DNA of 64,000 nucleotides, from the NCBI RefSeq assembly GCF_018614525.1, contig NZ_JAGGOL010000072.1, positions 601 to 64,600 of the forward strand. Direction: 5' to 3'. Positions 11,242 to 64,000 of this stretch are shown in pieces. The notes beneath the pieces were generated by a model that saw nothing but the letters and a program-made list of their open reading frames with translations, did no database searches and was not told the DNA's origin. The position numbers were made by a program, and so were the translations under genes. This DNA comes from Streptomyces sp. ISL-11 (GTDB lineage Bacteria > Actinomycetota > Actinomycetes > Streptomycetales > Streptomycetaceae). Position 1 is the first letter of the stretch; each line of letters begins with the position of its first letter.

Positions 11242-11799
11242 TCACCCGCGGTCGGCCCGCCATTCGGGAGCGAGGATCGCCCAGGCCTCCTTGTCGTGGC
11301 GGGTGCCGCCGTAGGGCCAGTATTCGCGGCGCACGCCCTCGAGCGTCATGCCCAGCCGCTTGGCCACCGCCGCGCTCCGTTCGTTGTCGGCCCGGCAGTG
11401 CCACTCGGCGCGGTGCATCCCCCGGGCGGTGAACGCCCAGTCCAGCAGGTGCCGGCACGCCTCTGTGATCAGGCCGTGGCCCTCGGCGGCCGGCTCCAGC
11501 CAGCAGCCGACCTCACATGAGCCCATGGCGGCGTTGAAGTCCACGAACATCACGCCGCCGACCAGCGTGCCATCGAGCCATATGCCGTAGAGGCGGGCAC
11601 CATCCGCCGCCTGGCGCTCGGCGTACCGGCTCAGTGTGGCTCGCGCGCCGTCGAGGTCGTCGGTGACGAACGCCGGCCCGACCCATGGCCGGATGTGCTC
11701 GCGGGCCCGGTCCAGATGGTCGGCGAACTCCTCGGCGTGCCAGGTCTCGAGCGGACGGAGGTGGGCGTTGCCCCGCAGCGGAAGAGAGAACAAGGTGAC
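11242..11799 (-). CDS. GNAT N-acetyltransferase (RimJ/RimL type)
   Basis: A 185-aa acetyltransferase with LRGNAHLRPLETWHAEEF at the start, GTLVGGVMFVDFN and CEVGCWLEPAAEGHGLITEA as the acetyl-CoA motif, and HRAEWHCRADNERSAAVAKR plus GMTLEGVRRE at the end. That is the RimJ/RimL family, which modifies N-terminal amines of proteins or small molecules. The GTG at 11799 is the likely start because homology begins at TLFSLPLRG. It is divergent from the TetR gene by 44 bases, so the two promoters must overlap and the regulator may control this gene. Confidence 0.8.
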   Translation of the reverse strand, partial: VTLFSLPLRGNAHLRPLETWHAEEFADHLDRAREHIRPWVGPAFVTDDLDGARATLSRYAERQAADGARLYGIWLDGTLVGGVMFVDFNAAMGSCEVGCWLEPAAEGHGLITEACRHLLDWAFTARGMHRAEWHCRADNERSAAVAKRLGMTLEGVRREYWPYGGTRHDKEAWAILAPEWRADRG

Positions 11800-11843
11800 C
11801 CCACATTCACACAACACACGTTACGGCTATGTACGGTAGCAGC

Positions 11844-12464
11844 ATGCCACGCACCAAGGGAGATCACGAAGCCCGCCGCCGCGAGGTCTCCGAGGCGGTG
11901 TGGCGGGTCCTGGCCGCGCACGGATTCGGCGGACTGACCCTGCGCGCCGTCGCCGCCGAGCTCGGCGCGACCACCGGCCTGCTCACCCACTACTTCCCCG
12001 CCAAGCGCGACCTGGTCGCGCACGCCCTGGACCTGCTCGAACAGCGCAGCGCCGCCCGCCCCCGGCGCGCTGCCGGGAAGGGCCTGTCCGCCGTACGGGC
12101 CGCTCTGCTCGACATCCTGCCGCTGACGGCCGCGGCCACCGACACCAACCGGATCTGGGTGTCCTCCTGGGACACCGCGCTCGCCGACCCCGAGTTGAGC
12201 GGCGACTACGCCCGCAAGTACGCGCGGAGCCGCGAGAAGCTGCGCGATCTGGTCGCGGCGGCCCAGCAGCTCGGCGAACTGCCCGCCGGGGACCCGGAGC
12301 GCATCGCGGCCGGTGCCCAGTCCTTCGTGCTCGGCCTGGTGGTGCAGGCCCTGTTCGCCCCGCGGGCGTATCCGCCCCACCACCAGGTCGAACTTCTCGA
12401 CGACTACCTGGCCGGGCTGACGTCCCGGCCTTCGCCCGGTGACGGCCGGGCGGCCTCGACCTGA
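11844..12464 (+). CDS. TetR/AcrR family regulator
   Basis: A 206-aa repressor-type protein. The N-terminal helix-turn-helix is GFGGLTLRAVAAELGATTGLLTHYF (about 28-52), and a helical ligand domain with two tryptophans follows (RIWVSSWDTALADP). The C-terminal part resembles TetR_C6-type regulators. TACGGT lies six bases before ATG 11844 and no Shine-Dalgarno sequence is visible, so the mRNA may be leaderless. An upstream in-frame ATG at 11829 falls in the probable promoter. The divergent acetyltransferase is the obvious candidate target. Confidence 0.82.
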   Translation: MPRTKGDHEARRREVSEAVWRVLAAHGFGGLTLRAVAAELGATTGLLTHYFPAKRDLVAHALDLLEQRSAARPRRAAGKGLSAVRAALLDILPLTAAATDTNRIWVSSWDTALADPELSGDYARKYARSREKLRDLVAAAQQLGELPAGDPERIAAGAQSFVLGLVVQALFAPRAYPPHHQVELLDDYLAGLTSRPSPGDGRAAST

Positions 12465-58430: not shown

Positions 58431-59546
58431 TCAGGCCGCGGCGGCGGGCACGACGCGCACGTCGTGGGCGGTGTCCTGCGCCGCCATGGCCAGCAGCCGG
58501 GCCGCCTCGTCCTCCAGTGCGGCCCGGTCCGCCGCGCGGATCCGCTCGAACGGTTCGACGGTCAGCGTCGTGGTGCCCGGCGCGCGGTCGAGGCGCCAGA
58601 CGCCGCGGATGAAGCCGTCGAGGACGACGGTGGGCGCGGCGCGGTTGACGCGCCGGACGCGGCGCCAGGACGCGGGGTCGACGACGCGGGCGCGGTCGGC
58701 GTAGGAGAGCGCGATGTTGTCGAACTCGGGCAGGAAGCGCACGGGAGCGTCCGTGTCCGGGTCGGGCAGCGGGGCGTCGGGCAGGTCGAACAGCTCGGTG
58801 CCGTTCTCGTCGCGGAAGGTCCGCAGGCCGGGGCGGATGCCGTCGACGACCGTGCGCAGCCCGGTCAGGCCGCACCACTTCTGCATGTCCTTCACGGACG
58901 CGGGGCCGAAGGCCGCGAGGTAGCGCCGCAGGACGGCGCCGGCGTCCGGGCGGGGGTCGGGCTCCTGGCCCAGCCAGGCCGCCGTGGTGGTGTGCGCGGC
59001 CGGTCCGCCGCGCCCCCACAGGCCGCGCGGCGGCACCTGGACGAGCGGGAGCAGCGCCCGTGCGGCCATGGCCAGGTCCTGCGGGGCACTGCCGGGCCAC
59101 TCGCGGGCGAGTGCCTGTCCGAGCTCGTGGAAGGTGTACGGGCGCTCGGCGACGAGGTCGCGGGCGAGCGCGGCCACCCGGGAGAGGTCCACTCCGGTGA
59201 GGCGCTTGCCCTGGTTGCCCCGGAAGGAGCGCTCCTGCACGGGCTGGCACAGGGCGCGCAGGGTGAGGCAGTCGCGGGCGCCGACGAGGTGCAGGGTGGA
59301 GCGCATCACGGCGATGCGGACGGCGGCGCGGGAGGCCAGGAGGCCGGACAGCTCCTCGGGGTCGAAGCCGTCGAGGCGGGCGGCGAGTGCGTAGTAGGGG
59401 TCCATCGGCGACTGGGCCTGGAGCCCGACCAGGTGCTCGACGGCGTCGAGGGCGGGCAGCGCGGCACGGCGGAGCAGCAGCTGGCGCTCCAGGAGGGCGC
59501 GATTGAGGGCACGTACGGTCAGAACAGGAGCCCCGGTCGGTGTCAT
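58431..59546 (-). CDS. AlkZ-family winged-helix DNA glycosylase-like protein
   Basis: A 371-aa protein of the HTH_42 family. It shows the QxQ motif VGLQAQSPMDPYYAL near residue 40 and the conserved RSTLHLVGARDCLTLR, YLAAFGPASVKDMQKWCGL and FLPEFDNIALSY. S. sahachiroi AlkZ excises azinomycin crosslinks, and relatives act on alkylated DNA or are resistance factors, though most members are untested. It is convergent with the decarboxylase gene, three bases apart. Confidence 0.82.
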   Translation of the reverse strand: MTPTGAPVLTVRALNRALLERQLLLRRAALPALDAVEHLVGLQAQSPMDPYYALAARLDGFDPEELSGLLASRAAVRIAVMRSTLHLVGARDCLTLRALCQPVQERSFRGNQGKRLTGVDLSRVAALARDLVAERPYTFHELGQALAREWPGSAPQDLAMAARALLPLVQVPPRGLWGRGGPAAHTTTAAWLGQEPDPRPDAGAVLRRYLAAFGPASVKDMQKWCGLTGLRTVVDGIRPGLRTFRDENGTELFDLPDAPLPDPDTDAPVRFLPEFDNIALSYADRARVVDPASWRRVRRVNRAAPTVVLDGFIRGVWRLDRAPGTTTLTVEPFERIRAADRAALEDEAARLLAMAAQDTAHDVRVVPAAAA

Positions 59547-59719
59547 GCGTTCACGTTAGGAGAGATCGAGGACAGATTCTGTCCGCCTCCGGGCCGAGTT
59601 CTTGTTCAGATGCCGTAAATCGATCCGTATATCCTGGTCCGCGGTCCCGCTTTCACGGCCCTGTTCCAGGATCCCGTTCCGCGTGCCGGCCGCCCACGAC
59701 GAGCGAGAGGGAGTGCCCC

Positions 59720-60859
59720 ATGCCCGAGAACCCTCCGCGCCGTCGGCGTTCCACGCCGAAGAAGCACTCCCGGCTGTGGCCGGCGGTCCCCGACGGCGAC
59801 GCCTCCGGGACGCCCGCCGCCGGCCCCGCCAACGGCGACGGGAGCGTCGTCCACGCCGCCGTCTACCGCGACGGCCACCGCGTGAGCACCCCCGTCTCGC
59901 TGGCCGACACCTACCGCCAGCTGCGCGCGCAGCCCGACGGCATGGCCTGGATCGGCCTGCACCGGCCCACCGAGCGCGAACTCCTCTCGCTCGCCGAGGA
60001 GTTCGACCTCCATCCGCTCGCCGTCGAGGACGCCCTCGAAGCCCACCAGCGCCCCAAGCTGGAGCGCTACGGCGACATCCTCTTCGTCGTCCTGCGCGCC
60101 GCCCGCTACCTCGACGCCCCCGAGGAGGTCGACTTCGGCGAGCTCCACCTCTTCGTCGGCCCCGACTTCCTCATCACCGTCCGGCACGGGGCGGCCCCCG
60201 ACCTCTCCGCCGTCCGCGCCCGCATGGAGGCCACCCCCGAGCTGCTGGCCCTGGGCCCCGAGGCGGTGCTCTACGCCATCCTCGACGCCGTGGTCGACGG
60301 CTACGCACCGGTCGTCGCGGGCGTCCAGAACGACATCGACGAGATCGAGACCGAGGTCTTCGGCGGCGACCCGGCGGTCTCCCGCCGCATCTACGAACTC
60401 GCCCGCGAAATGGTCGAATTCCAGCGCGCCACCCGCCCCCTGGTCGGCATGCTGCACGGCCTCATGGCAGGCTTCGCCAAATACGGCACCGACGACGAAC
60501 TCCAGCGCTATCTGCGCGACGTCGCCGACCACGTCACCCACACCAGCGAACGCGTCGACGGCTTCCGCTCGGCCCTCGCCGACATCCTCGCGGTCAACGC
60601 CACCCTGGTCACCCAGCAGCAGAACGCGGAAATGCGCGCCCTGGCGGAGGCGGGCTTCGCACAGAACGAGGAGATCAAGAAGATCTCGTCGTGGGCGGCC
60701 ATTTTGTTCGCGCCGACGCTGGTGGGGACGATCTACGGCATGAACTTCGATGCCATGCCCGAGCTGCACTGGGCCTTTGGCTACCCCTTCGCGATCCTGC
60801 TGATGGCAGTGGTCTGCGTCAGCCTCTACGTCATCTTCAAGAAGCGCGACTGGCTGTAG
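59720..60859 (+). CDS. corA: CorA-type magnesium/cobalt transporter
   Basis: A 379-aa channel protein. A basic N-terminal extension precedes the cytoplasmic funnel (DLHPLAVEDALEAHQRPKLE, VQNDIDEIETEVFGGDPAVS), and two C-terminal transmembrane helices flank the selectivity motif YGMNF in LFAPTLVGTIYGMNFDAMPE. Ends KKRDWL, as usual. GAGGGAG lies upstream of ATG 59720. It imports Mg2+ in pentameric form. No riboswitch-like leader was recognised. Confidence 0.92.
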   Translation: MPENPPRRRRSTPKKHSRLWPAVPDGDASGTPAAGPANGDGSVVHAAVYRDGHRVSTPVSLADTYRQLRAQPDGMAWIGLHRPTERELLSLAEEFDLHPLAVEDALEAHQRPKLERYGDILFVVLRAARYLDAPEEVDFGELHLFVGPDFLITVRHGAAPDLSAVRARMEATPELLALGPEAVLYAILDAVVDGYAPVVAGVQNDIDEIETEVFGGDPAVSRRIYELAREMVEFQRATRPLVGMLHGLMAGFAKYGTDDELQRYLRDVADHVTHTSERVDGFRSALADILAVNATLVTQQQNAEMRALAEAGFAQNEEIKKISSWAAILFAPTLVGTIYGMNFDAMPELHWAFGYPFAILLMAVVCVSLYVIFKKRDWL

Positions 60860-61327
60860 GCGGCACATCGACGTCATTGATCAACTTAGCTCTTGCGAAC
60901 GCATGGAGGCGGCCAGCAAGGCCCCTGGGGAGAATCTGGGGAGAATGCGCAGCCCGCCCCCGCGAGGCGCTCCCCTGCACCTTGAGGATGCCCCTGCCGC
61001 GCCGTCGACCGCCTCCAGCAACACGCGGCTGCGGGGGGTGACGAAATCGGGTGGCACGGCATCTGCTGCGCCAGATCATCCACCGCGCAGGCCCCGGTCG
61101 TAGCCGAGCGGACCCCGGGCGCTCGCCGGAGGCCCGGCCGACGCCGGGTCGGCGAAAGGCCTGGCGTGCGGGACCGACGGAACCGGGTAACGTCTTTGTC
61201 ATGTTCTTCCAGACGCCGATTTACGAGTGAGAGCGTGACGGGCCCCTGCTGATGTCCTTCGACGTCGCCGCGCCCGTCCCCCACCGATGAATCCGTAGAT
61301 CACTTCACATCATCACCGGGAGAACCC
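60860..61327. other. Intergenic space without a supported gene
   Basis: The 468 bases between corA and the DUF6243 gene show no protein with family character. A small direct repeat (TGGGGAGAA, near 60930 and 60941) and a possible promoter (TAACGT, eight bases before an ATG at 61201) are the only marked features. Confidence 0.6.
61201..61290 (+). other. Thirty-codon frame with an in-frame UGA
   Basis: ATG 61201 encodes MFFQTPIYE and then TGA; the same frame continues ERDGPLLMSFDVAAPVPHR to a second TGA at 61288-61290. TAACGT lies eight bases upstream. It could be a nine-residue leader peptide, a decayed short gene or chance. Nothing supports stop readthrough. Confidence 0.25.
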
Positions 61328-61543
61328 GTGACCGACAGCAAGAACATCAACAACCCCGTGGGCCAGGGCGGCGGCCAGCGCAAGAAGCTGTCCCGCGCCG
61401 AACGACAGAACAACGGTCCGCACCGCAACCGCGACCGCCAGAGTGCCGCCGACCAGAAGGCCGAGCTGGTGCGCAAGATGCGCGAGAAGGCAGCCGCAGC
61501 TGAGGGCGCCGGGCAGGCGAGCGACGACACCGCAGAGAGCTGA
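61328..61543 (+). CDS. DUF6243 family protein
   Basis: A 71-aa basic protein beginning TDSKNINNPVGQGGGQRKKL and containing LSRAERQNNGPHRNRDRQSA, DQKAELVRKMREKAAAAE. This is the DUF6243 pattern, conserved in Streptomyces with unknown function. It is highly charged, helical at the C-terminus and probably cytoplasmic. GTG start with GGGAG upstream. A perfect terminator follows 33 bases after the stop. Confidence 0.8.
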   Translation: MTDSKNINNPVGQGGGQRKKLSRAERQNNGPHRNRDRQSAADQKAELVRKMREKAAAAEGAGQASDDTAES

Positions 61544-62443: not shown

Positions 62444-63112
62444 TCACTCCGCCAGCACGATGGTGTGCGGTGTCGGCGCGAGCTGCGCGCGGTAGCGGCG
62501 GACGCCCCAGCTGCGGTGCTCCAGCTCCGCCGCGACCAGCACCTCGGCCGTGTTCATACAGTCGGGCACGAGCTCCACCAACGCGGCCACCGGGTGATCG
62601 CCGACCAGAGGGAAACCCCTGACTCGCCGGAACTCCCACTGCGGGTTCGGCTGGGAAGCTCCGTGGCCCCGGACGATCCACTCCTCCCTCGTCGGTCCGG
62701 ATCCTGGCGGCTTCTCCACCCCTACATCCAGCACTCCTGTCGTGACCGTGAAGCTCACGCCCGTCCCGAGGCCGGGGACCGGGCGGGTGCGCTCGCCGGG
62801 GTCGATCAGGCGCGCGATCGGCTGTACCTCATGCTCCAGTGTGGACAGTGCGACGCCCAGGGAGGCGTGGCGGAATACGCCTTTGCCCTCCGGTGTCTCA
62901 GGGCGAAACGAGCACACCATGAGCAGTTGCCGGAACTCCCGGTCGGGTGTGGCCCTGAGGTAGGACAGCCAGCCCTCCGGCGCGCCCGCGTGGTCGGCAG
63001 GCAGTAGGTCCCAGCCGAAAGTGAGCCTGCCGCGTAGCGGTGCGTCATCCACCGGGCTGCCGAGCGTACGCTCCGGCACGAGTTCGACGTCGTGCAGCCG
63101 AATCTCGATCAT
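62444..63112 (-). CDS. Unknown protein coupled to the CHAT protease gene
   Basis: A 222-aa soluble protein, MIEIRLHDVELVPERTLGSP at the start and mostly beta strands after that (EFRQLLMVCSFRPETPEGKG, TGVSFTVTTGVLDVGVEKPP, HPVAALVELVPDCMNTAEVL). No catalytic motif or family is recognised. Its ATG overlaps the stop of the CHAT gene by four bases (ATGA), so both are made together, and it may be a substrate, adaptor or inhibitor of the protease. Confidence 0.65.
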   Translation of the reverse strand: MIEIRLHDVELVPERTLGSPVDDAPLRGRLTFGWDLLPADHAGAPEGWLSYLRATPDREFRQLLMVCSFRPETPEGKGVFRHASLGVALSTLEHEVQPIARLIDPGERTRPVPGLGTGVSFTVTTGVLDVGVEKPPGSGPTREEWIVRGHGASQPNPQWEFRRVRGFPLVGDHPVAALVELVPDCMNTAEVLVAAELEHRSWGVRRYRAQLAPTPHTIVLAE

Positions 63113-64000
63113 GCGGCGGCTCCCTTGGTCCTACCGTGCACATAGGTGAACGCTCCCCAGTCACGGTAGTGGGGATACGTGGCACGCGTGGCGAGTTGGG
63201 CACCGCGGAAGGCCTGCTCCGGATCCGCGCCGCGGGCGACTCCTTGGTGCAGGTGGTGGTAGAAGTACGTGACCGGATCCGGGCGCACGGGCCACAGGCA
63301 CCCGACGACGGCCTGCGCTCCGGCGGTGATCAGTGCCGAAGGGATGCCACGAATGTTGTCTCCGCGGTCGAATCGGCCGAGCGCCGACTCGCAAGCGGCG
63401 AGTGTGACAAGGCGGACGCCGCGCAGGTCGACATCCAGGAAGTCGTACGCGAATACGCGGCCGTCGTCGTCGCCGTCCGGCGTGAGGTAGAGGCAATGCA
63501 TCCACGGCGCGTCCTCGTCCAGCGCCCCGTGTACGGCAATGTGGACGACGTCCGCCGTGGACATCTCTGCGCGCAGCCTGTCGCGAGTGGCCGCACAACC
63601 GGTGAGGGCTTCAGCGCCTACCGCCTCGGCAACCCTCCGCGCGTGCTCCTCCAGCGCCAGTTCGGCATGCAGACCGAAAGGAACACCCCCGGCAGCGGAG
63701 GCCACTACAACGGTGTGGCCCTCACGCGCAGGCACTTCGACGGGTGCCAGGGCTTCGATGCCGGCGACCGTGGTGACCGTCCAGTCGTCGGCGATCAGAC
63801 GGCCGCCCCTGCGGCACAGCGGTAGGGGCAGGTAGTGCAGAGCGCCGTGCGGCCAGGCCAGGATTCGGTCCTTACCCTGGGAGCGCCACTTGTCCCACAG
63901 TTCGCTGCCCCCAAGCGGCAGGCCGACCGACTCCAGCAGCCGACTGCCCTCCGGTGTCACGTCGCCGAACAGCGGGTCGCGTTCGATCTCCGTGCGGATC
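63109..64000 (-). CDS. CHAT-domain cysteine protease, 5' end outside the window
   Basis: At least 296 residues of the C-terminal part are visible and the frame is open to the edge (IRTEIERDPLFGDVTPEGSR before the first in-window GTG at 63960). The caspase-like CHAT domain is clear: the His in ADVVHIAVHGALDEDAPW (codon 63531-63529) and the Cys in RLVTLAACESALGRFDRG (codon 63393-63391), followed by GIPSALITAGAQAVVGCLWP and YFYHHLHQGVARGADPEQAF. CHAT proteases process partner proteins, often in conflict or death pathways. The N-terminal domains, needed to name the system, are outside. Confidence 0.85.
   Translation of the reverse strand, partial: IRTEIERDPLFGDVTPEGSRLLESVGLPLGGSELWDKWRSQGKDRILAWPHGALHYLPLPLCRRGGRLIADDWTVTTVAGIEALAPVEVPAREGHTVVVASAAGGVPFGLHAELALEEHARRVAEAVGAEALTGCAATRDRLRAEMSTADVVHIAVHGALDEDAPWMHCLYLTPDGDDDGRVFAYDFLDVDLRGVRLVTLAACESALGRFDRGDNIRGIPSALITAGAQAVVGCLWPVRPDPVTYFYHHLHQGVARGADPEQAFRGAQLATRATYPHYRDWGAFTYVHGRTKGAAA

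What the first reader, a model, noticed from the sequence alone, without database searches (positions are those of the whole stretch)
63109..64000. CHAT protease with a translationally coupled unknown partner at the edge
A complete His/Cys dyad is present and the next gene overlaps by ATGA. Such pairs commonly belong to conflict or programmed-death systems. The partner is of no recognised family and the protease's sensing domains lie outside the window.
Basis: partly seen in the sequence, partly recalled or inferred. Interest (0 to 1): 0.6.

Follow-up and report, generated by a model that had tools for sequence, protein, structure and literature searches.

The report
CHAT protease with dedicated beta-rich partner
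A caspase-like protease and a small, apparently all-beta protein of no known family travel together as a two-gene cassette in Streptomyces and relatives, and probably form a protease-plus-substrate switch of a bacterial defence or cell-death system.

Summary
The window's edge carries the last quarter of a CHAT protease gene (about 1146 aa, 63109-66549 in window coordinates) with an intact His/Cys dyad, followed by a 222-aa gene (62444-63112) overlapping it by ATGA. The partner matches no Pfam, NCBIfam, PHROG or PADLOC model. The exception lies near a contig end. Eight partial copies mostly lack CHAT. Among 295 genus genomes, the 8 with a (near-)full match to the protease's N-terminal part are the 8 with a close full-length partner. 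The dyad is kept in 21 of 21 pairs tested. The partner family recurs with other CHAT proteins, including EAD1-CHAT plus an EAD1-helicase (Hachiman-like) and EAD1-CHAT plus ClpN-EAD1: a constant CHAT+partner core with swapped sensors. Best reading: the partner is CHAT's dedicated substrate/effector (0.45); a securin-like inhibitor is the main rival. Cleavage, toxicity and phage defence are not shown; both structure models are weak.

The parts
62444..63112 (-). Partner gene, 222 aa; predicted all-beta, soluble by hydropathy, no known family; proposed substrate/effector of the CHAT protease
   Evidence: ORF; no Pfam/NCBIfam/PHROG/PADLOC hit; AF2 model mean pLDDT 56.7, 12 strands and 1 helix; no strongly hydrophobic segment
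63109..64000 (-). 3' part of the CHAT protease gene (last 296 aa, catalytic domain); the CDS continues beyond the window to about 66549 in window coordinates (L003:5710-9150, 1146 aa)
   Evidence: PF12770 E 1.8e-36; full ORF on the contig; start by comparison with relatives
63529..63531 (-). Catalytic His codon (VHIAVHG)
   Evidence: His kept in 21 of 21 partner-linked CHATs aligned
63391..63393 (-). Catalytic Cys codon (TLAACESA)
   Evidence: Cys kept in 21 of 21 partner-linked CHATs aligned
63109..63112 (-). ATGA overlap of CHAT stop and partner start (translational coupling)
   Evidence: same 4-bp overlap in 10 of 10 intact named relatives, not in all distant pairs
63120..63126 (-). AAGGGAG Shine-Dalgarno-like run inside the CHAT 3' end, 7 nt before the partner ATG
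   Evidence: read from the sequence; A/G-rich run at the same place in relatives

Best explanation
The two genes form a mobile protease-substrate cassette. The protease is a separase/Csx29-like protein: an N-terminal helical solenoid senses a trigger and holds a C-terminal CHAT cysteine protease inactive. When triggered, the CHAT domain cuts its dedicated, co-translated partner, a soluble all-beta protein, and the cut or released partner does the damage or sends the signal that stops growth, as a defence against phage or other invaders. Shown here: gene structure, intact dyad, tight conserved linkage, unrelated genomic sites, and re-use of the same partner family with other CHAT architectures whose sensors differ. 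Inferred: that CHAT is active, that the solenoid is the sensor, that the partner is the substrate, that the outcome is growth arrest or death, and that phage is the trigger.
For: Linkage: 31 of 32 distinct intact-length partner loci have a CHAT gene beside them or one gene away, although the 21 other partner-positive genomes scanned (of 29) hold only 1-11 CHAT matches each. Full or near-full N-terminal matches occur in 8 of 295 genus genomes, the same 8 that hold the close full-length partner. The dyad is intact in 21 of 21 pairs aligned, so catalysis seems to be under selection where the partner is present. Constant core, swapped sensor: partner with long CHAT proteins that show no other Pfam domain (9 of 10 long ones scanned); with CpXC-CHAT and weak TPR matches (L037); with EAD1-CHAT plus EAD1-DEAD helicase (L035; best PADLOC match HamB of Hachiman, E 7e-17); with EAD1-CHAT plus ClpN-EAD1 (L076). 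CHAT and partner distances correlate (21 pairs r 0.90, 0 of 5000 permutations; 13 pairs without most of the close clade r 0.51, 23 of 5000). Precedent: PMC9729208 (passages read) reports that TPR-CHAT cleaves Csx30, encoded in the same type III-E locus, and states that CHAT substrates are commonly encoded near the protease.
Against: No conserved cleavage site was found by eye: a basic residue soon after the invariant Pro105 is seen in many but not all members (alignment). The partner has no known effector domain and no membrane segment. The structure model is weak (pLDDT 56.7) and its best PDB matches (Z 6.4 or less) are within the range of a common arrangement. Linkage and co-inheritance fit an inhibitor or a cofactor as well. 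No EAD is detected in the window's own pair. The window's other neighbours were not scanned for defence genes; the few scanned with Pfam are ordinary or unassigned. Of 10 neighbour proteins from 7 other copies, most are ordinary or unassigned.
Confidence: 0.45

Rival explanations
1. Securin-like inhibitor/chaperone: the partner binds and holds the CHAT protease inactive (perhaps as a pseudosubstrate), and the protease itself, acting on host or phage proteins, is the effector.
For: CHAT is the bacterial relative of separase, and separase is held by the inhibitor securin (PMC9729208, passages); the full-length model's best Foldseek hit is human separase, E 4.1e-5 but TM-score 0.10 (poor model). 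Translational coupling suits a 1:1 inhibitor. No full or near-full protease N-terminal part without a close partner was seen in 295 genomes.
Against: The partner is conserved about as well as CHAT itself (mean pairwise identity 82% against 84%) and recurs with CHATs of different sensor architecture. It is predicted to be a folded beta protein (weak) rather than a disordered peptide like securin (recalled).
Confidence: 0.22
2. Recognition or scaffold subunit: the partner is a non-cleaved cofactor that presents the trigger or the real substrate to CHAT.
For: All-beta model; PDB matches include adaptor ear domains, Z 6.4, rmsd 3.0 over 108 residues. It occurs together with the solenoid or EAD proteins rather than instead of them, so it could add specificity.
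Against: Putative sensors vary between systems while this protein is constant, the opposite of what is expected from a recognition subunit.
Confidence: 0.15
3. Ordinary cellular regulation: the pair is a developmental or stress protease module of actinomycetes with no role in conflict.
For: Nothing here proves defence; the genes scanned beside the window's pair include a GH19 chitinase and a DPBB-domain protein, and most of the 10 neighbours scanned at other copies are ordinary or unassigned.
Against: Patchy presence (18 of 295 genus genomes), unrelated flanks in 13 of 18 copies compared, a copy at 82% partner identity in Pseudofrankia, a copy on a plasmid beside abiE genes, decayed copies, EAD1/HamB-like coupling of relatives.
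Confidence: 0.15

Closest known systems
Type III-E CRISPR Craspase (TPR-CHAT/Csx29 with substrate Csx30)
   Same: Helical-repeat protein ending in a CHAT protease with a His/Cys dyad; substrate encoded in the same locus (PMC9729208, passages)
   Different: NCBIfam Csx29 model gives only 15.9 bits against a cut-off of 300, over profile 513-624 of 670; the partner matches no known family; CRISPR genes and arrays were not searched for
Borvo (BovA)
   Same: CHAT domain; only PADLOC hit of the window protein, 30.7 bits; CHAT listed as Borvo's domain in PMC10952713 (passage)
   Different: Match covers only BovA 545-669 of 711; here there is a second, linked gene (that Borvo is a single-gene system is recalled)
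Bacterial gasdermin-protease operons
   Same: Logic: a caspase-like protease (CHAT counted among them) next to the gene of its substrate, cell death as outcome (PMC9612521, passages)
   Different: Partner matches no profile and is modelled as all-beta with one short helix (weak)
EACC1-caspase two-gene system
   Same: Two genes, prevalent in actinobacteria, a constant component paired with a caspase-superfamily protease whose other domains vary (PMC7159879, passages)
   Different: EACC1 is a 5' gene with one membrane helix; here the partner has none and is 3' of CHAT in 27 of 32 distinct intact loci
EAD-coupled conflict systems
   Same: Relatives L035 and L076 carry EAD1 on CHAT and on a second protein
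   Different: No EAD found in the window's own two proteins

Membership tests
CHAT peptidase (PF12770) | Profile match above the curated cut-off | tested here: met
   126.5 bits against 24, E 1.8e-36
CHAT peptidase (PF12770) | His/Cys catalytic dyad | tested here: met
   H1007 and C1053 of the 1146-aa protein; aligned in 21 of 21 partner-linked CHATs
CHAT peptidase (PF12770) | Proteolytic activity | not testable with these tools
   needs an assay
Type III-E TPR-CHAT (Csx29) | Full-length match to the Csx29 model NF041237 | tested here: not met
   15.9 bits against cut-off 300, profile 513-624 of 670 only
Type III-E TPR-CHAT (Csx29) | Adjacent gRAMP effector and CRISPR array | not tested
   no search for gRAMP or arrays was made
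Borvo (BovA) | Full-length match to BovA | tested here: not met
   PDLC03832 matched only at 545-669 of 711, 30.7 bits
Bacterial gasdermin system | Partner is a gasdermin | tested here: inconclusive
   no profile match; structure model too weak to exclude
EACC1-caspase two-gene system | 5' component with a single membrane helix | tested here: not met
   highest 19-residue Kyte-Doolittle mean 0.58-1.69 in 18 aligned members; partner is 3' of CHAT in the window
EAD-coupled conflict systems | Effector-associated domain on the protease or partner | tested here: not met
   window pair: none in Pfam; met in relatives L035 and L076
Beta-pore-forming proteins of the hemolysin fold | Fold of the partner | tested here: inconclusive
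   VIA Z up to 5.9, rmsd 4.4 over 153 residues, on a pLDDT 56.7 model

The most novel reading that the evidence does not exclude
The partner defines a new class of protease-gated executioner: a soluble all-beta protein, unrelated to gasdermins, kept next to CHAT proteases across actinomycetes and released by cleavage to form a membrane pore or another lethal assembly. It would be plugged into interchangeable invader sensors (helical solenoid, CpXC-TPR, EAD1-coupled Hachiman-like helicase, EAD1-coupled ClpN protein).
Probability: 0.2. Interest if true: 0.82.

Novelty: new variant of a known kind. Interest (0 to 1): 0.56.

Why it matters
CHAT proteases are widespread, but few of their substrates are known; Csx30 and gasdermins are the cases met in the passages read. 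A family of small proteins tied to CHAT in nearly every intact locus seen, across CHATs with different sensors, is a tractable set of likely CHAT substrates or controllers. The system is two genes and can be tested directly by co-expression. If the partner is an executioner, bacteria would have another kind of protease-released killer, which bears on how caspase-type cell death arose.

Tried and rejected
Chance ORF or misread: rejected; the partner is conserved at 73-93% identity in 10 named relatives with an intact gene.

Type III-E CRISPR (by the Csx29 model), Borvo, EACC1: a defining feature was tested and not met.

Fold of the partner: AF2 with 11 close sequences gave pLDDT 56.7. Foldseek against PDB gave no match at E 0.001 or better, best 0.011. 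VIA gave adaptor ear domains (best Z 6.4) and many hemolysin/leukocidin/cytolysin-fold chains (Z 4.7 to 5.9). I do not build on this: Z under 8 may be a common arrangement, the rows are many entries of one family, and the model is weak. Gasdermins were not among the 50 rows shown; that excludes nothing.

Fold of the protease: pLDDT 47. Separase is first in Foldseek (E 4.1e-5, TM-score 0.10) but is not among the 50 rows of VIA, which are mostly helical-repeat proteins. This supports only the coarse layout. Profile of the partner against PDB sequences: best E 1.8; of the protease: best E 0.32, Csx29-type CHAT proteins.

Phages: no tblastn match to the window partner in 50,697 records. Plasmids: one record, with the pair. 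Draws of genomes, each counting the window's own: genus 18 of 295, family 10 of 200, class 5 of 394, phylum 1 of 396. The draws overlap.

Empty site: a search with the CorA-side flank gave scattered matches; I did not read those places, so no empty site is shown. Mobility rests on the flank comparison.

Cleavage site: looked for by eye in the alignment; no conserved residue found.

Papers: searches (open-licence PMC only) gave listings in which I saw no description of this partner family. Passages only were read, of PMC8195603, PMC7159879, PMC10910872, PMC10952713, PMC9729208 and PMC9612521. Most subscription papers are not in the library, so absence from print is not shown.

Results against the reading: 8 of 43 partner loci are partial (L038 matched by tblastn only). 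In seven of these (L032, L038, L063, L069, L070, L072, L073) my CHAT profile found no catalytic domain nearby, although L063 keeps an N-terminal piece of the protease; L064 keeps a shortened CHAT. Some of the weak ones may be chance matches. That profile also missed the two EAD1-CHAT genes that Pfam found (L035, L076), so its misses are not proof of absence. L036 is intact-length with no CHAT seen, but its 3' end lies about 295 bp from the contig end. The ATGA overlap is not universal: gaps separate the genes in L029, L067 and L071 and L077. CHAT genes without this partner also exist, for example a second one in L053 with no partner match of its own in the region held.

Full report
What is there. 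The window is bases 601-64600 of an 82,946-bp contig of a 6.67-Mb draft genome in 219 contigs. The genus is unnamed in the tool; the named relatives by sequence are Streptomyces and one Pseudofrankia. On the minus strand at the window's end lies the last quarter of a CHAT protease gene. On the contig its ORF is 1207 aa from the first GTG; relatives suggest a start at or near the ATG that gives 1146 aa, equal to window coordinates 63109-66549. The catalytic domain scores 126.5 bits against Pfam CHAT. His1007 and Cys1053 are present. The partner, 222 aa at 62444-63112, starts in an ATGA overlap behind an AAGGGAG run. The same 4-bp overlap is found in 10 of 10 intact named relatives, but gaps separate the genes in some other pairs (L029, L067, L071, L077).

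Do the two genes belong together? I searched with the partner alone, so a neighbouring CHAT is independent evidence. Places came from 295 genus genomes (18 hit), 200 family (10), 394 class (5), the named genome collection (12 loci) and plasmids (1); the draws each include the window's genome. All places were read with flanks, 43 loci in all including the window. Of these, 35 hold an intact-length partner (at least 80% of the profile) and 32 of those sequences are distinct. From the gene maps and profile hits I count among the 32: CHAT directly upstream on the same strand in 26; CHAT upstream with one gene between in 1 (L037); partner first, then EAD1-CHAT, in 2 (L035, L076); convergent neighbours in 2 (L039, L068); none seen in 1 (L036, whose 3' end lies about 295 bp from the contig end). 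That is 31 of 32. The 8 partial copies are told under Tried and rejected. Of 29 other genomes with a partner match, 21 were scanned with the CHAT family; each has 1-11 matches. In the window's genome there is one over the cut-off, this one, and one below it. A search with the protease's N-terminal 847 residues, which leave out the CHAT domain, found full or near-full matches in 8 of 295 genus genomes. These are the same 8 that hold a full-length partner at 71% identity or more. Three more genomes had short fragments only.

How they evolve. In 10 named relatives the mean pairwise identity is 84% for the CHAT region, 82% for the partner, 78% and 72% for two parts of the solenoid and 74% for the N-terminal region. 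Both catalytic residues are kept in 21 of 21 pairs aligned, a selection of the 32. CHAT and partner distance matrices correlate with r 0.90 (0 of 5000 permutations reach it). With most of the close clade left out, 13 pairs give r 0.51 (23 of 5000). This shows joint inheritance, not contact.

Mobility and decay. Flanks of up to 8 kb were compared among 18 copies. Only one group of five (L027, L028, L029, L065, L066) shares more than 1 kb; the other 13 share at most 810 bp with any copy. A Pseudofrankia copy has 82% partner identity to the window. A copy lies on a Streptomyces plasmid beside abiEi/abiEii genes. I scanned 10 neighbour proteins from 7 other copies with Pfam. A transposase and an integrase-core protein lie at L053, a helicase-nuclease at L061 is close to PDC-S37 and Mokosh in PADLOC, and a second helicase lies at L061. 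The others are ordinary or unassigned, among them transporter, AMP-binding and hexapeptide proteins. Decayed copies exist: in L063 the front of the protease gene runs into the back of the partner gene, in L064 the protease is shortened and the partner frame is interrupted, and in L032 a short C-terminal stretch of the partner remains.

Constant core, changing sensor. In 9 of 10 long partner-linked proteases scanned, CHAT is the only Pfam domain. The AF2 model is poor (pLDDT 47) but shows a mixed alpha/beta start, a helical solenoid from about residue 168 to 780, then CHAT. Separase is the best Foldseek hit, and helical-repeat proteins fill most of the VIA list, without separase. In the tenth, L037, the protease has CpXC and a weak TPR match and lies between genes with TPR matches below Pfam's cut-off. 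In L035 the order is partner, EAD1-CHAT, EAD1-DEAD helicase, and the helicase is closest to HamB of Hachiman in PADLOC. In L076 it is partner, EAD1-CHAT, ClpN-EAD1. EADs are described as adaptor domains that link effectors and sensing modules in predicted counter-invader systems (PMC8195603 and PMC7159879, passages). The partner family therefore follows CHAT through different sensors. This is what one expects of a substrate, or of an obligatory controller, of CHAT itself.

What the partner is. The window partner has no Pfam, NCBIfam, PHROG or PADLOC match, and 16 family members scanned against Pfam give only scattered single weak hits (best E 0.027). It is soluble by hydropathy. The model is all-beta with one short helix but weak, and fold comparisons are not decisive. 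Leu11, Pro105 and Trp159 are invariant in 18 aligned members.

Mechanism. In type III-E CRISPR a TPR-CHAT protein is released from autoinhibition by its sensor and cuts Csx30, encoded in the same locus. The same paper states that CHAT substrates are commonly encoded near the protease (PMC9729208, passages). Caspase-like proteases, CHAT counted among them, sit next to bacterial gasdermins (PMC9612521, passages). By this logic the partner is most likely the CHAT's substrate and the effector of the system. The inhibitor reading (securin to separase) is the main rival and is not excluded. Shown: linkage, dyad, unrelated genomic sites, modularity. Inferred: cleavage, sensing by the solenoid, outcome and trigger.

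Verdict. The system is a new two-gene variant of CHAT protease modules with a partner family that I found undescribed, as far as the open-licence library could tell (searches listed under Tried and rejected).

Noticed in passing
L035:5133-10520 (minus strand; genome G099): Three-gene locus: partner-family gene, EAD1-CHAT, and an EAD1-fused DEAD-box helicase closest to Hachiman HamB (PADLOC E 7e-17). It looks like a separate candidate anti-phage system.
   Followed up: partly
L076:7520-10405 (minus strand; genome G542): Partner-family gene, EAD1-CHAT and a ClpN-EAD1 protein in a row.
   Followed up: partly
L075:10811-11161 (+): A third gene of 116 aa overlaps the partner's end by 4 bases; no Pfam family. 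The other copies were not checked for such an overlap.
   Followed up: no
L063 around 10001; L064 8889-10707: Decayed copies: the protease front runs into the partner back (L063), shortened protease and interrupted partner (L064).
   Followed up: partly
window 60980-61113: In relatives the CorA-like gene side (59540-60859; family name recalled) and the stretch with the 71-aa ORF 61328-61543 match at separate places, so a genomic junction probably lies near 61.0-61.1 kb.
   Followed up: no
L003:10226-11056 (-) and 11357-11860 (+), beyond the window: GH19 chitinase and a DPBB (lytic transglycolase-like) protein upstream of the cassette.
   Followed up: no
L053:1-3747 (-): A second CHAT gene lies about 3 kb from the cassette in Streptomyces sp. 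AC1-42W.
   Followed up: no
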